NCBI RefSeq assembly: GCF_035920445.1
Contig: NZ_CP109162.1
Location: 6,014,001-6,078,000, forward strand
Length of the DNA stretch: 64,000 nucleotides
Direction: 5' to 3'
DNA from: Nocardia sp. NBC_01730
Lineage (GTDB): Bacteria; Actinomycetota; Actinomycetes; Mycobacteriales; Mycobacteriaceae
The notes beneath the pieces were generated by a model. It was not told the DNA's origin, made no database searches, and worked only from the letters and a program-made list of their open reading frames with translations. Position 1 is the first letter of the stretch. The number at the start of each line of letters is the position of its first letter. A program made the translations under genes and the position numbers. This document shows, in pieces, positions 3,199-60,445 of the stretch.

Positions 3199-3662
3199 GA
3201 TCGGAGCTCGATCACTGTTTTACCGACACGGATGGGCGTGCCGAGTGGAACTCGGACCGCGGTCGTGACTTTCGCGCGATCGAGATAGGTGCCGTTCGTC
3301 GAGCCGAGATCTTCGACGTACCAGTCGTCACCACGCGGAGAAAGTCGCGCATGTCTGGTCGAGGCGTAGTCATCAGTGAGTACCAGCGTGGAATCATCCG
3401 CACGTCCGATCAGCACCGGTTGGGTGCCGAGCGAGATGCGAGTGCCGGCGAGTGAACCTTGAGTCACCACAAGAAATTTGGCGCCCTTCTGGCCCCGGCT
3501 GAAGGAAGGCAGCACCGCGGAACCGCGTGCGGCCCTGGGCTGTATCCGAATGCCGGATGCCGCGTAGATGTCGCTGCGCAACGTGCGCAGCACAGCCCAC
3601 ACGAACAACCACAACAGCAGAAGGAACCCCGCACGGGTCAGTTGCAGGATCAGTCCCTGCAC
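3195..3662 (-). CDS. fhaB: FHA-domain protein FhaB (FipA-like)
   Basis: A 155-residue protein with an N-terminal transmembrane helix (about residues 8-28) and a C-terminal forkhead-associated domain. The FHA signature is complete: GRADDS, STRHARL and GSTNGTYLD, the residues that bind phosphothreonine. Mycobacterial FhaB links PknA/PknB signalling to cell division. The GTG at 3660-3662 is chosen because an AGGAGG lies nine bases upstream and the protein then begins VQGLILQLTRAGF, as in mycobacterial homologues. A longer in-frame extension upstream to 3725 looks non-coding. The stop overlaps the pstP start. Confidence 0.92.
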   Translation of the reverse strand: MQGLILQLTRAGFLLLLWLFVWAVLRTLRSDIYAASGIRIQPRAARGSAVLPSFSRGQKGAKFLVVTQGSLAGTRISLGTQPVLIGRADDSTLVLTDDYASTRHARLSPRGDDWYVEDLGSTNGTYLDRAKVTTAVRVPLGTPIRVGKTVIELRS

Positions 3663-3866
3663 GGCGCTCCACCTCCTGTTCGACCGTGTACGTCGGTGCC
3701 GTAGGTGCGGTTCGACCACCCCCACCAGCCTGCTGGTCTTGCCGGCCCCGGTATCGGTGCCGCGCGTGTGTTGGCAGCATCATAGGGCCGTCGGTCGATT
3801 TCGATCACGATACGACCGACGAATCCTCGAGAGCCATGTCGTGACCTGCACCGCGAGCTTACGGGA

Positions 3867-5258
3867 TCAGAGGATACGGATCAGGATCTCGGAATGCCCG
3901 GCGCGGATGACATCGCCGTCGGCGAGTTGCCAATCCTGCACGGGGGAACCGTTCACCAGGGTGCCGTTGGTGGAGCCGAGATCGGACAACATCGCGGTTT
4001 GGCCGTCCCAGCGCACCTCGATGTGCCTGCGCGAGACACCGGTGTCCGGCAGCCGGAAGTGCGCGTCCTGGCCGCGGCCGATGATGTTGCTGCCTTCCCG
4101 TAGCTGGTAAGTCCGACCACTGCCGTCGTCGAGCTGCAGGGTCGCGGAGTAGCCCGAACCGGCCGCGGCCGCGGCGCCGTAACCCTGGCCGCCGCCGTAG
4201 CCCTGCTGCGCGCCGTAGCCCTGCTGCTGCGAGTAGGCCTGGCCGTAGCCGCCCTGCTCATCCTGGCCGTAGCCGCCTTGATCGCCGTAGGTCTGGTCGC
4301 CGTAGCCGGGTTCAGCGTAGCCCGGCTGGCCGTAGCCCTGGCCTTGCTGGCTGTACCCGGGTTCGGCATAGCCCTGCTGCTGGCCGTAGCCGGGATCGCT
4401 GTAGCTTTGCTGGCCGTACCCGGAATCGGCATAGCCCTGCTGCTGGCCGTAGCCGGGATCGCTGTAGCCTTGCTGGCCGTACCCGGAATCGGCATAGCCC
4501 TGCTGCTGGCCGTAGCCGCGGTCGCCGTACCCCTGCTGGCCGTAACCTGGGTCACCGTACCCCTGCTGGCCGTAGCCGCGGTCGCCTTGCTGGTAGTCGT
4601 AGCCGTTCTGGTAGTCGCCGTACCCCTGCTGAGCGTCCGGCGCTTGGTAATCCGCTGCGTACGCGCCGCCGCCGCGGCCGTAGTCGTCGCGGTACGCGCC
4701 GTTCTGCGGACCGCCGCGACCAGCAGGCGGTGGGGCGTACCCGCGGTTGCGTGGATCGGACTCCGCGGGCTCACGGCTCGGGTCGTAGCCTGAGTTCTGC
4801 GTCATGGGGCCAGCTCCTGGTTGCGGGGTTGCAGGTCGTTGTGGCGGTGATTCGGGGCCGCGAGCCGCTGTGGCTCTGTGCCCGACGTCCGGATCGACGC
4901 GGCCACTTGCCCTGAACTGTCCGGTGTGCAGCGTAGGTGATGCCTCGAACGCCACGTGTACTTCGCCGTAGGTCTGCCAGCCTTGCTCGCGGATGTAATC
5001 CTGTAGATGTTTGGCGAACGCGCGGGTAGTGAGGTCGTGATCGGCATCCAGTTGCTGGTGATCCGAGGAGTTGATCGTGATCACATAACTGTTGGGCGCC
5101 AGGAGATGGCCGCCGCCGAGATCCTGGACGTGATCGGCAGCCTCACGTTGCAGCGCCGCTTCCACCTCCTGTGGCACGACATTGCCGCCGAACACTCTGG
5201 CGAAGACATCCCCGACGGCGCCCTGTAGGCGACGCTCGAACCGCGAAACGATGCCCAT
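3867..5258 (-). CDS. fhaA: FHA-domain protein FhaA with DUF3662 domain and repetitive linker
   Basis: A 463-residue protein in three parts: an N-terminal DUF3662 domain (about 1-120, starting [19 protein letters not shown]), a long Gly/Tyr/Gln/Pro-rich linker (about 155-360), and a C-terminal FHA domain with GRGQDA, SRRHIEV and [10 protein letters not shown]. In mycobacteria FhaA binds phosphorylated MviN and limits peptidoglycan synthesis. The ATG at 5256-5258 has a GAGGAGG upstream; earlier in-frame codons lack homology. The linker is made of near-identical DNA repeats (63-bp period at 4364-4552), so its length may vary between strains. It is first in the operon and is separated from fhaB by about 200 bp. 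Confidence 0.95.
4364..4552 (-). repeat. 63-bp tandem repeat inside fhaA linker
   Basis: Copies begin at 4364, 4427 and 4490. The first two are nearly identical; the third diverges after about 30 bases. Each unit encodes 21 residues of the [16 protein letters not shown] type. Shorter related units flank it on both sides. The period is a multiple of three, so copy-number changes would keep the frame. Confidence 0.9.
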
Positions 5259-57758: not shown

Positions 57759-58307
57759 TCAGACGCTGCCGCCCGCTGTCGAAGGGGCACCGGATGTATC
57801 ACTGGGGCCGCTCATTTCCCTGGCGATGAATTCTTCGAGGTCGAACAGGTTCGACCCCGCGCGATCGGCGATCGTGAGCAGGGTTGTCATATTGGCGACT
57901 TCTTCGACCTGCTCCTTCAGGAACCACTGCATGAACTGCTCGCCGAGGTAGTCGCCCTCTTCCCGGGCTGTGCTCGCCAGCTGGATGATCTGGTCGGTGA
58001 CCGTCTTCTCCTGGGCGAGGGCCAGCGCGATCGGTTCGCGGGCAGTCTCGAAGTGGGATTTGGCGGCGTCGACGCCGGAAAGCTCGATACTGATATCCCG
58101 ATCGAGGAAGTACTGCACGATCATCATCGCGTGGTTGCGTTCTTCGACCGCCTGCGCGTAGAAGCGCTTGGCCAACTGGGGCAGATCCGCGTTATCGAAC
58201 CACACCGCTATCGCAATGTATTGATGTTCGGCATTGAATTCGTGCCGGATCTGGTCGTGCAGCAGGCCATGGAATTTGCTGCGGGGGGATTCCGGATGGC
58301 TGGACAT
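57759..58307 (-). CDS. bfrB: Ferritin BfrB with intact ferroxidase site
   Basis: A 182-residue four-helix-bundle ferritin that oxidises Fe(II) and stores iron in a 24-mer shell. All ferroxidase ligands are visible: Glu in RHEFNAEHQY (helix A), EERNH (helix B, Glu and His), AQEKTVTDQ (helix C Glu) and KEQVEEVAN (helix D). It resembles M. tuberculosis BfrB (Rv3841), which is controlled by IdeR. The start at 58305-58307 gives an N-terminus of the usual length; ATGs at 58331 and 58343 are alternatives. A candidate IdeR box lies at 58360-58378. Confidence 0.93.
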   Translation of the reverse strand: MSSHPESPRSKFHGLLHDQIRHEFNAEHQYIAIAVWFDNADLPQLAKRFYAQAVEERNHAMMIVQYFLDRDISIELSGVDAAKSHFETAREPIALALAQEKTVTDQIIQLASTAREEGDYLGEQFMQWFLKEQVEEVANMTTLLTIADRAGSNLFDLEEFIAREMSGPSDTSGAPSTAGGSV

Positions 58308-58359
58308 AGCAGCGACATTAGCGCTGGTCATGCCGCATGTCATCCAAGTGCAACCTTAT

Positions 58360-58378
58360 TGAGGCTAGTGTTGCCTAA
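58360..58378. promoter_or_regulatory. Candidate IdeR iron box upstream of bfrB
   Basis: TGAGGCTAGTGTTGCCTAA matches the IdeR consensus (TWAGGTWAGSCTWACCTWA) at about 14 of 19 positions. It lies directly before the stop codon of the upstream ferritin gene and about 50 bases before the chosen bfrB start. Its imperfect symmetry makes it a moderate candidate. Confidence 0.55.
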
Positions 58379-58927
58379 TTAATTCTTCGCTGCCCCTGCC
58401 ATTTTCGGCGCCGTGCCGTCGAAAGGTTGCGGTGCCTGAAGCTCGCGGGCGACGAACTCCTCGACGTCGAACAACTGGCCCGCGGCACGATCGATGACAG
58501 TCAGCAGCGTGGTCGTTCTGGCCACGTTCCGCACCTGTTCTTCGAGGAACCACTGGATGAATCGCTCGCCGAGATAGTCACCGGACACACGCGCCGCGCG
58601 GGCCAGGTCGCTGATCTGTGTGCTGCGGGTCTGTTCGAGCTCCAGCAGGAAAGCTATTGCGGCGCGAGGGTCTTCGAAGGTCGAGCAGATCTCGTCCAAC
58701 CCGCCGATCTGCACATAGAAGTCACGGTCGAGCAGGTACTGCACCATCCGCAGGGCGTGCGCGTACTGCTCGCGCGACCGGCCGTAGCCGTGTCCGGCCA
58801 ACTGCGGCAACCGGTTCGAGTCGAAGTACACGGCCGCGGCGAGATACTGCTGGGCGGCGGTGAACCCGTGACGGATCTGTGCGCGCAGCAAGTCGGGGAA
58901 GGACTCAGCGACATCGGTGTCCGGCAT
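58379..58927 (-). CDS. Ferritin paralogue with degenerate ferroxidase site
   Basis: A 182-residue ferritin, the same length as BfrB and collinear with it along the whole chain (for example QIRHGFTAAQQYLAAAVYFD and QWFLEEQVRNVARTTTLL). Three ferroxidase ligands are changed. The helix A Glu is Gly (RHGF instead of RHEF), the helix B Glu is Gln (EQYAH instead of EERNH) and the helix D pair EE is Arg-Asn (EQVRNVA). The helix B His and helix C Glu remain. It should fold and join a ferritin shell but not oxidise iron well. It is first of the two tandem genes and lies 10 bases after the LCP gene's stop. Confidence 0.88.
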   Translation of the reverse strand: MPDTDVAESFPDLLRAQIRHGFTAAQQYLAAAVYFDSNRLPQLAGHGYGRSREQYAHALRMVQYLLDRDFYVQIGGLDEICSTFEDPRAAIAFLLELEQTRSTQISDLARAARVSGDYLGERFIQWFLEEQVRNVARTTTLLTVIDRAAGQLFDVEEFVARELQAPQPFDGTAPKMAGAAKN

Positions 58928-58937
58928 GTCACTGACG

Positions 58938-60323
58938 CTACCTCGTCAGCAGATCCTCGGGGACGGCCTGGTCCTTGGCGAGCGCGTCGAAGAACCGGCT
59001 CGCCTTGTCCTTGTCCCACAGCAGCACGTTGCCGCTATCGGTGTCGGCGAATCCGCCGACCGGCACCGCCGTCGTGACCGTTTCGCCTTTCAGCGCCCAG
59101 CCGAGCCTCGCCAGGTCCCAGATGTGGTCGCCGTCGTCGACCTTCAGCGACTTTGCCGTATCGGTGGCCAGCGGCCAGAGCGTGAACGGGTTGGCCAGGG
59201 TGGCACCGCTGGTCGCCTTCTTCAGGAGGGCGGCCATGAAGATCCGCTGGTTGTTCATCCGGTCCAGGTCGGCGAGGGCGGTGGCGCGGCTGCGCACGAA
59301 GCCCAGTGCCTGGGGTCCGTTCAGCCGCTGGCAGCCCGCCTGCAGGTCGATGCCCGCGAGCGGGTCGTCGATGGGCTTCGGGACGCACACGTCGATGCCG
59401 CCGAGCGTGTCGACCACGCTGGCGAAACCGCCGAAGCCGATCTGCGCGTAATGGTCGACGCGCACGCCGGTGGCGATCTCCACGGTCTGCACGAGCAGCG
59501 CAGGGCCGCCGAGCGCGAACGCGGCGTTGAGCTTGTCCTTGCCCTGGCCGGGGATGCTCACGTAGGAGTCGCGCGGCAGGCTGACCAGGGTGGTCTTACC
59601 TGATTCGGAAACATGCACCAGCATGATCGTGTCGGTGCGCTCCGGCCCGACCTCACCGCCGGTGGCGAGCTCCTGCTCCTGCTCGGGGCTCAGGCCGCCG
59701 CGTCCGTCGGAGCCGACCAGCAGCCAGTTCGTTCCGGGTGTGTTGCCGACTCGGTCGGCGTAGTTCGCCAGGGCGGGGATCCGGTTCAGCGAGCCGTCCA
59801 GCTGGACGACGGCTCCGACCGCCGCGAGCACCAGCACCAGCAGGAACACCAGGAACCAGCGGAAGGGGCGGCGCTTGCGGCGAGGTCGCGGAGCTCTCGG
59901 CGGTCGCTCGCCGCGTGGCGGCGGTGGCGGTGGCGGAGGCGGACCTTCGCGGTACGGCCGAGGCTGCTGTGGCGGTGCGTGTGGCGGTCCTTCGCCGTAC
60001 CGGACCGGGCGCTGCGTGGGGGCGTGCGGTGGGCCTTCGTGGTGCGGGACCGGGCGCTGGGTCGGCGCATGCGTGCGTGCCTGCGAGGGTTTGCGTGGCG
60101 GCATTCGCGGCGGCACCGGCGCCGGCGGGACCTGCGAATAAGCGAGCGGTGGCGGATACGGACCCGATGTGCCGTCGCGGCGCAACACCTGGGTGGGCTC
60201 GATGCGCGGTGGTTGTGGATCACCCGCCGCCGGCGCGCCGCCCCGCGCCGGCGGCACACCGGGCCGGCCGGGCGGCGGCACCCGGCGCATCCGCGCGTTG
60301 CGCTGGGGGTCGTCGCCGTTCAT
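58938..60323 (-). CDS. LytR-CpsA-Psr (LCP) family cell-wall ligase
   Basis: A 461-residue membrane protein. A long proline/arginine-rich cytoplasmic N-terminus (about 165 residues with repeated HAPTQRPVP-type units) is followed by one transmembrane helix (FLVFLLVLVLAAVGAVV) and the extracytoplasmic LCP domain. RTDTIMLVHVSES, SLPRDSYV (catalytic Arg/Asp), GGIDVCVPKPI and FVRSR are the family motifs. LCP proteins join arabinogalactan or other polymers to peptidoglycan using lipid-linked donors. The ATG at 60321-60323 is chosen near a GTCTCAGTG; an earlier start is possible. It precedes the two ferritin genes on the same strand. Confidence 0.9.
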   Translation of the reverse strand: MNGDDPQRNARMRRVPPPGRPGVPPARGGAPAAGDPQPPRIEPTQVLRRDGTSGPYPPPLAYSQVPPAPVPPRMPPRKPSQARTHAPTQRPVPHHEGPPHAPTQRPVRYGEGPPHAPPQQPRPYREGPPPPPPPPPRGERPPRAPRPRRKRRPFRWFLVFLLVLVLAAVGAVVQLDGSLNRIPALANYADRVGNTPGTNWLLVGSDGRGGLSPEQEQELATGGEVGPERTDTIMLVHVSESGKTTLVSLPRDSYVSIPGQGKDKLNAAFALGGPALLVQTVEIATGVRVDHYAQIGFGGFASVVDTLGGIDVCVPKPIDDPLAGIDLQAGCQRLNGPQALGFVRSRATALADLDRMNNQRIFMAALLKKATSGATLANPFTLWPLATDTAKSLKVDDGDHIWDLARLGWALKGETVTTAVPVGGFADTDSGNVLLWDKDKASRFFDALAKDQAVPEDLLTR

Positions 60324-60445
60324 CACTGAGACTCTACTTATCGGGTGGGCTTCGGGTGCCGCGTGTGTCAGCACCGCGGTGAACGCTGTCCTCCGTAATT
60401 CGCGGGGGAAACCCAGCCGTTAGCGCGCCGGAGGGAACAGTTGCG

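What the first reader, a model, noticed from the sequence alone, without database searches (positions are those of the whole stretch)
58307..58927. Ferroxidase-dead ferritin in tandem with a normal one
The second ferritin has lost three metal ligands (helix A Glu to Gly, helix B Glu to Gln, helix D Glu pair to Arg-Asn) but keeps length and the rest of the sequence of BfrB, 182 residues each. This looks like an evolved non-oxidising subunit, the bacterial counterpart of an animal L chain. It may mix with BfrB, help mineral growth, or have another job. Adjacent genes and shared regulation support mixed shells.
Basis: partly seen in the sequence, partly recalled or inferred. Interest (0 to 1): 0.8.

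Follow-up and report, generated by a model that had tools for sequence, protein, structure and literature searches.

The report
Non-oxidising ferritin partner in Nocardia
Next to a normal iron-storage ferritin gene, Nocardia bacteria carry a second ferritin whose iron-oxidising centre has lost a key metal-binding residue in all 111 intact copies examined, yet its sequence is held by selection and it likely serves as a non-oxidising partner subunit in mixed storage cages, much like the light chain of animal ferritin.

Summary
F2 (58379-58927, minus strand, 182 aa) is a BfrB-type ferritin with Gly22, Gln55, Arg134 and Asn135 where M. tuberculosis BfrB and the neighbour F1 have Glu. It is not a local accident: of 150 Nocardia genomes, 138 have F1 and 113 of those have F2 directly upstream (111 intact, 2 frame-broken); none of the 12 without F1 has F2. 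All six di-iron ligands stand in 136/136 aligned F1 copies; bridging Glu55 is gone in 111/111 F2 copies (His, Gln, Lys, Asn, Ser or Arg). F2 is under purifying selection (omega 0.13; F1 0.05). A Lys/Arg now sits at one of four core positions in 110/111 F2 against 0/136 F1, so the pocket looks rebuilt, not just eroded. The tandem predates the loss: in 37 pairs from five other genera, among them Rhodococcus, Rhodococcoides and Antrihabitans, both copies keep all six ligands, and F2 lies next to their upstream copies in the tree. Mixed cages remain inferred. 'Shared regulation' is not supported: an IdeR-like box precedes F1 but not F2, which follows an LCP gene by 10 bp. Closest precedent: haem bacterioferritin Bfr1/Bfr2 of Magnetospirillum. 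New variant of a known kind.

The parts
58379..58927 (-). F2: ferritin subunit without a complete ferroxidase centre (G22, Q55, R134, N135 in BfrB numbering; H58, E99, Q132 kept), 182 aa
57759..58307 (-). F1: BfrB-type ferritin with all six di-iron ligands, 182 aa (alternative upstream start 58343)
58360..58378 (-). IdeR-like box TTAGGCAACACTAGCCTCA directly after the F2 stop codon, 71 bp before the F1 start; consensus recalled, binding not tested
   Evidence: similar boxes before the downstream copy in relatives
58938..60374 (-). LytR-CpsA-Psr (LCP) family gene ending 10 bp before the F2 start; likely read together with F2
   Evidence: PF03816, 153.4 bits; gap 9-10 bp in 94 of 111 genomes

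Best explanation
F2 is a BfrB-type ferritin subunit that has lost the bridging glutamate and other ligands of its ferroxidase centre, is therefore predicted not to oxidise iron itself, and likely co-assembles with the active neighbour F1 into mixed 24-subunit cages. Shown: the loss of Glu55 in every intact copy, complete ligand sets in the related upstream paralogue of other genera, purifying selection, a fold model matching BfrB, mostly kept interface residues, and a basic residue in the old metal pocket of 110 of 111 copies. Inferred: F1 does the oxidation; F2 dilutes the number of oxidising sites and stabilises or shapes the shell, so that cage composition tunes uptake speed against storage. 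Because an IdeR-like box precedes F1 only, F2 would be supplied at a steadier level with the LCP gene while F1 would rise with iron, so the F1:F2 ratio would follow iron status.
For: Conservation: 113 of 138 F1-bearing Nocardia genomes (150 searched) carry F2 upstream of F1; the 111 intact pairs are all on one strand, 67-162 bp apart; none of the 12 genomes without F1 shows F2. Ligands: F1 EEHEQE 136/136; F2 lacks E55 111/111 and E22 84/111, but keeps E99 110/111, Q132 109/111, Y29 109/111. Targeted loss: of 50 sites invariant in F1, c1 and c2, F2 keeps 29 in at least 90% of copies and loses 9 in most; 5 of those 9 are among the 9 invariant sites that PMC3072985 names for the ferroxidase centre, 4 among the other 41 (Fisher p = 0.005; with my wider list, which adds neighbours of E99, 7 of 11 against 2 of 39, p = 1e-4); of 6 invariant interface sites 5 are kept, none lost. 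Rebuilt core: Lys/Arg at 51, 55, 98 or 102 in 110/111 F2, 0/136 F1, 0/38 c2, 2/39 c1; mean net charge of 11 core positions -4.0 in F1, -0.21 in F2; 51 and 55 both basic in 1 of 111. Selection: omega F1 0.050, F2 0.130 (65 genomes each), c1 0.072, c2 0.057 (37 each). Ancestry. In this genome PF00210 finds F1, F2 and one protein that I read by eye as a Dps, so F1 is the only complete cage ferritin seen. Fold.
Against: No assembly data. D40, which in BfrB bonds R144, R148 and T141 of a neighbour (PMC3072985 Table 3), is Arg in 105/111 F2 while R148 is kept 111/111: one known contact is altered. F2 loss is tolerated: 25 of 138 F1-bearing genomes lack it and 2 have broken copies; 7 changes on the F1 tree. 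Likely control signals differ from F1. F2 is less constrained than F1: omega 2.6 times higher, median pairwise dN/dS 0.23 (26 pairs) against 0.07 (384 pairs). Twenty copies keep five of the six ligands (only E55 changed), so deadness there rests mainly on one substitution. Absence of F2 without F1 is weak support, since one deletion can remove both neighbours.
Confidence: 0.6

Rival explanations
1. F2 assembles on its own (cage or smaller oligomer) and has a separate non-oxidising task, for example holding iron or another ligand, or a role tied to the LCP gene.
For: F2 follows the LCP gene by 9-10 bp in 94 of 111 genomes and lacks the IdeR-like box. F2-specific residues are nearly fixed: M61R 111/111, D40R 105/111, A95L 104/111.
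Against: Pure F2 cages would place R40 near R148 at every such contact, if the BfrB contact geometry holds. The LCP neighbour is shared with the active upstream copies of relatives, so it is not specific to F2. Not found in the 12 genomes without F1.
Confidence: 0.22
2. The pocket was remodelled into a different metal site, for instance one metal held by His55, His58, Glu99 and Asp/Glu135.
For: H55 in 52/111, with H58 and E99 kept in many of them (patterns GHHEQD 12, GHHEQE 12).
Against: No ligand set is common to all: position 55 is H/Q/K/N/S/R, H58 is Asn in 21, 135 is N, S, G, A or K in 30 of 111; of the A/B-site acid or His ligands this window has only H58 and E99. A basic residue lies in the pocket in 110/111.
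Confidence: 0.1
3. F2 is a slowly decaying duplicate with no function.
For: Broken in 2 and absent in 25 of 138 F1-bearing genomes; omega above that of F1. In Rhodococcus sp. JCM 9791 an upstream ferritin stretch with Lys at 55 is fragmented, so a decay path exists.
Against: Omega 0.13, 111 intact frames across a genus, losses concentrated in one pocket, M61R in all copies, a basic core residue in 110/111, mostly kept interface residues.
Confidence: 0.06

Closest known systems
Magnetospirillum gryphiswaldense Bfr1/Bfr2 (PMC6529640; abstract and passages seen)
   Same: Two adjacent genes; one subunit has mutated ferroxidase residues; there the two were shown by experiment to form a mixed 24-subunit cage.
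   Different: Haem bacterioferritin subfamily; the non-oxidising Bfr2 is the subunit that contributes to haem binding. F2 is BfrB/Ftn-type with no Met at position 56 (equivalence to Met52 recalled), and its co-assembly is unproven.
Animal ferritin L chain (PMC7762939 and PMC7557750, passages seen; residue detail recalled)
   Same: Same fold, lost ferroxidase centre beside an active paralogue, B-site Glu kept; in 20 F2 copies the bridging Glu is Lys (Arg in one more), as recalled for E62K of the L chain. A light-chain salt bridge is the subject of Santambrogio 1992 (title seen in reference lists only).
   Different: Independent origin; the acidic nucleation cluster of L chains is not consistently present in F2; mixing not shown.
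Mycobacterium abscessus complex tandem ferritins mycma_0076/0077 (PMC5992710; abstract, outline and passages seen)
   Same: Neighbouring BfrB-type ferritin genes in a related genus.
   Different: Both keep all six ligands and both oxidise iron according to that paper.
Pseudomonas aeruginosa FtnA/BfrB mixed Bfr (PMC8945002; abstract and outline seen)
   Same: Bacterial mixed 24-mer whose composition follows oxygen supply.
   Different: Recombinant 24-mers of either subunit form a mineral core; the genes (PA4235, PA3531) are far apart; BfrB dimers bind haem.
Mycobacterium tuberculosis BfrB (PMC3072985; sections 9 and 12 and passages seen)
   Different: Complete ferroxidase centre; no second BfrB-type copy recalled.

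Membership tests
BfrB/Ftn-type non-haem ferritin | PF00210 above cut-off, four-helix bundle plus short E helix | tested here: met
BfrB/Ftn-type non-haem ferritin | complete di-iron ferroxidase ligands | tested here: not met
   E22, E55, E135 replaced in this F2; E55 absent in 111/111. F2 is thus filed as a fold member that lacks the enzyme site
BfrB/Ftn-type non-haem ferritin | assembly into 24-subunit cages | not testable with these tools
   only interface residue conservation seen: 5 of 6 invariant interface sites kept, D40 changed to Arg in 105/111
Animal L chain (works like) | ferroxidase centre lost beside an active paralogue | tested here: met
Animal L chain (works like) | basic residue in the old pocket while the B-site Glu stays | tested here: met
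   K/R at 51, 55, 98 or 102 in 110/111, E99 in 110/111; that they form a salt bridge is inferred
Animal L chain (works like) | acidic nucleation cluster on helix B (positions 50, 53, 54, 57 by recalled mapping) | tested here: not met
   57 is G or A in 94/111, 50 is G, A or R in 80/111, E53 in 43/111, E/D54 in 73/111; no consistent cluster
Animal L chain (works like) | mixes with the active chain | not testable with these tools
   no complex modelling available
Ferroxidase-less haem bacterioferritin subunit (Bfr2 type) | axial haem Met in helix B | tested here: not met
   equivalent position 56 is R, Y or H in 111/111 (equivalence recalled from the E-x-x-H motif)

The most novel reading that the evidence does not exclude
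Nocardia evolved its own H/L-type non-haem ferritin: after an ancient tandem duplication of two active BfrB genes, the upstream copy traded its di-iron centre for a charge-neutral, salt-bridged core and an altered contact (D40R), becoming an L-like subunit that assembles only together with the active chain, with the ratio set by iron through the box in front of F1 alone.
Probability: 0.45. Interest if true: 0.8.

Novelty: new variant of a known kind. Interest (0 to 1): 0.62.

Why it matters
[quoted passage not shown] A genus-wide, selected, non-oxidising subunit of the non-haem type would be an exception, and a convergent bacterial case of the H/L division of labour whose active/active counterpart still exists in sister genera. 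That makes the order of events (duplicate, lose the bridging Glu, neutralise the pocket, keep the shell) directly testable.

Tried and rejected
Sequencing error or one-off mutation: rejected, E55 is lost in 111/111 intact copies. Recent copy of Nocardia F1: rejected, F2 lies next to the upstream copies of Antrihabitans and away from F1 plus the downstream copies. Tree limits: one search is a careful tree whose bootstrap had not settled (33 of the 65 thinned genomes plus all 25 F1-only ones); one search is a quick tree (23 of 65; F2 one side of a branch, support 99) with several long F2 branches and a midpoint root for drawing only; the upstream label needed 3 changes there, one because the single ferritin of L202, labelled c1, falls with the downstream copies. 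F2 confined to Nocardia: nearly so, within capped lists. Among the 120 listed of 227 homologues every copy without E55 that bears a name is from Nocardia; P0100, P0109, P0112, P0115 and P0117-P0120 keep E55. In 80 of 237 named loci, 89 of 93 ferritin hits keep all six ligands; the other four are a 31-residue alignment artefact (L316), a Nocardia F2 (L261), and two Rhodococcus upstream copies with Lys at 55: strain SMB37 (intact frame) and strain JCM 9791 (fragmented). The SMB37 copy itself was found in one of 401 family genomes; the next best match there is 55% identical. Promoter and terminator scan: none found, little informative in actinobacteria. Rfam: only a tRNA in the window. The IdeR consensus search has a real background: 24 of 333 base shuffles of the F1 upstream stretch reach 12 of 19.

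Limits of counts: the 40 non-Nocardia loci were chosen by me from rows with printed coordinates (401 genomes, 344 with a match), so 37/37 active pairs is not a random sample; 13 of the 37 are from a genus (g23) for which no name was found. Codon models used 65 of 111 F2-bearing genomes, thinned at 88% identity. The wider ferroxidase list of 14 positions includes 95, 98 and 102, picked by me as neighbours of E99 after seeing the F1/F2 alignment; one search repeats the test with literature-named sites only and is weaker (p = 0.005). Searches for print: (open-licence papers only, judged by titles and abstract starts); none listed a study of a Nocardia ferritin. That enterobacterial FtnB lacks some ferroxidase residues is recalled; passages of PMC8264917 call it a canonical ferritin.

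Full report
Observation. The gene at 58379-58927 on the minus strand (F2) encodes a 182-residue ferritin; the next gene on the same strand, 57759-58307 (F1), encodes another of 182 residues. Both match the Pfam ferritin family and their nearest solved relative is BfrB of M. tuberculosis. With the ligand list of PMC3072985 (section 9) plus Gln132 (PMC5992710 Table 3), F1 keeps E22, E55, H58, E99, Q132 and E135, while F2 has G22, Q55, H58, E99, Q132 and N135, with R134 in place of a C-site Glu; the C-site E54 and E131 are kept.

Conservation. The window lies in an 8.68-Mb single-contig genome whose closest named F2 relatives are Nocardia. Of 150 genomes of the genus, 138 hold F1; five more show only weak ferritin-like matches and seven none. 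I fetched 137 of the 138 loci and used the window for the last. 113 have F2 upstream of F1: 111 intact, all on the same strand with a 67-162 bp gap, and 2 broken in frame. 25 have F1 alone (one, L161, near a contig edge; a genome-wide search also gave it a single match). The 12 genomes without F1 show no F2. On a quick tree of 138 F1 genes, presence of an intact F2 needs 7 changes, which I read as repeated losses.

What changed. In 136 aligned F1 proteins the six ligands are invariant. In 111 F2 proteins E55, the bridging ligand, is always gone: His 52, Gln 22, Lys 20, Asn 15, Ser 1, Arg 1. E22 is gone in 84 (Gly in 81), H58 in 23, E135 in 75; E99 stays in 110 and Q132 in 109. Twenty F2 copies differ from the full ligand set only at 55; all 21 copies with Lys or Arg there keep E22.

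Not simple decay. Omega under a codon model is 0.130 for F2 and 0.050 for F1 (65 genomes each), with 0.072 and 0.057 for the active upstream and downstream copies of relatives (37 each); pairwise medians are 0.23 (26 pairs) and 0.07 (384 pairs) for F2 and F1. F2 is thus constrained, though less than F1. Of 50 sites invariant in all three active groups (F1, upstream copy c1, downstream copy c2), F2 keeps 29 in at least 90% of copies. Nine are lost in most copies: E22, F48, Q51, E54, E55, M61, A95, V102, E135. Five of the nine are among the nine invariant sites that PMC3072985 names for the ferroxidase centre, four among the other 41 (p = 0.005); with my wider list, which adds neighbours of E99, it is 7 of 11 against 2 of 39 (p = 1e-4). 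Of six invariant positions named as inter-subunit contacts in PMC3072985 Table 3, five are kept and none is lost.

A rebuilt pocket. In 110 of 111 F2 copies a Lys or Arg stands at 51, 55, 98 or 102; this holds for 0 of 136 F1, 0 of 38 c2 and 2 of 39 c1. The mean net charge of 11 core positions is -4.0 in F1 and -0.21 in F2. Position 51 is basic in 85 copies where 55 is not, 55 in 20 where 51 is not, both in 1, neither in 5, four of which have R98. I infer that the retained E99 pairs with the new basic residue. A95 became Leu in 104 and M61 became Arg in all 111. The equivalent of M61 in the human H chain, K68, is described as lying on the internal cavity wall (PMC3072985 passage).

Ancestry. 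In 40 loci that I chose from other genera of the family, 37 carry a tandem pair on the strand of an upstream LCP gene, mostly adjacent, in genus g23 sometimes up to about 5 kb apart, and all 77 ferritins in the 40 loci keep the six ligands. By matching contig lengths the set includes Antrihabitans, Rhodococcus and Rhodococcoides fascians; g23 (13 of the pairs) was not named. In the tree F2 lies next to the upstream copies of Antrihabitans, and F1 falls among the downstream copies. F2 of this window is 56% identical to its best c1 and 49% to its own F1. The simplest reading is that an active/active pair came first and the upstream copy was inactivated in the Nocardia line. Two Antrihabitans upstream copies lack two C-site acids while keeping the six ligands, a possible intermediate. 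In Rhodococcus, strain SMB37 lost E22, E55 (to Lys) and H58 in an intact upstream copy, and strain JCM 9791 has a fragmented one with Lys at 55: a separate inactivation that may lead to loss.

Regulation. A box resembling the IdeR consensus (recalled) lies immediately behind the F2 stop codon, 71 bp before F1. Matches of 12 or more of 19 occur before 98 of 111 F1 genes, 0 of 111 F2 genes, and in 24 of 333 shuffled controls; before 34 of 38 downstream and 0 of 39 upstream copies of relatives. F2 starts 9-10 bp behind the LCP gene in 94 of 111; in 15 the gap is 50-919 bp and in 2 no LCP gene was matched. Shared regulation is therefore not supported; separate control of the two subunits is the better guess.

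Function. The genome shows three PF00210 matches: F1, F2 and a protein that I read by eye as a Dps, so F1 is the only complete cage ferritin seen for F2 to join. I commit to a non-oxidising co-subunit, at 0.6; that F2 lacks a working ferroxidase centre of its own I hold at about 0.95.

Novelty. Mixed bacterial cages with a ferroxidase-less subunit are known for the haem bacterioferritin of Magnetospirillum (PMC6529640, passages), which also cites proposals for Neisseria and Synechocystis. For ferritins at large, a 2020 review states that every prokaryotic subunit has the centre (PMC7762939, passages). My literature searches found no description of F2 (open-licence papers only). Hence a new variant of a known kind.

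Noticed in passing
L086 (G012) about 3639-4174 and L089 (G089) about 3663-4104: F2 is broken in frame in two of 113 Nocardia genomes while F1 is intact.
   Followed up: partly
L267:2254-2865; L258 about 983-1475: Rhodococcus sp. SMB37 has its own upstream ferritin lacking E22, E55 (Lys) and H58; in Rhodococcus sp. JCM 9791 the corresponding copy is fragmented.
   Followed up: partly
L218 and L219 (Antrihabitans), upstream ferritin copy: C-site acids 131 and 134 are replaced while the six di-iron ligands stay: a possible half-way state.
   Followed up: no
all 111 F2, BfrB position 61; window F2 residue 60: Met to Arg in every F2 copy against Met in all 213 active copies aligned (136 F1, 39 c1, 38 c2); role unknown, possibly cavity wall.
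   Followed up: no
G000:C1:29640-30047 (L171): The genome's only other PF00210 match looks like a Dps by eye; no haem bacterioferritin appeared in that search.
   Followed up: partly
G007, G008, G016, G022, G069, G073, G077, G102, G107, G110, G111, G138: Twelve Nocardia genomes lack both F1 and F2 (G107 and G110 are under 90% complete); five show only a weak ferritin-like match to F1.
   Followed up: no
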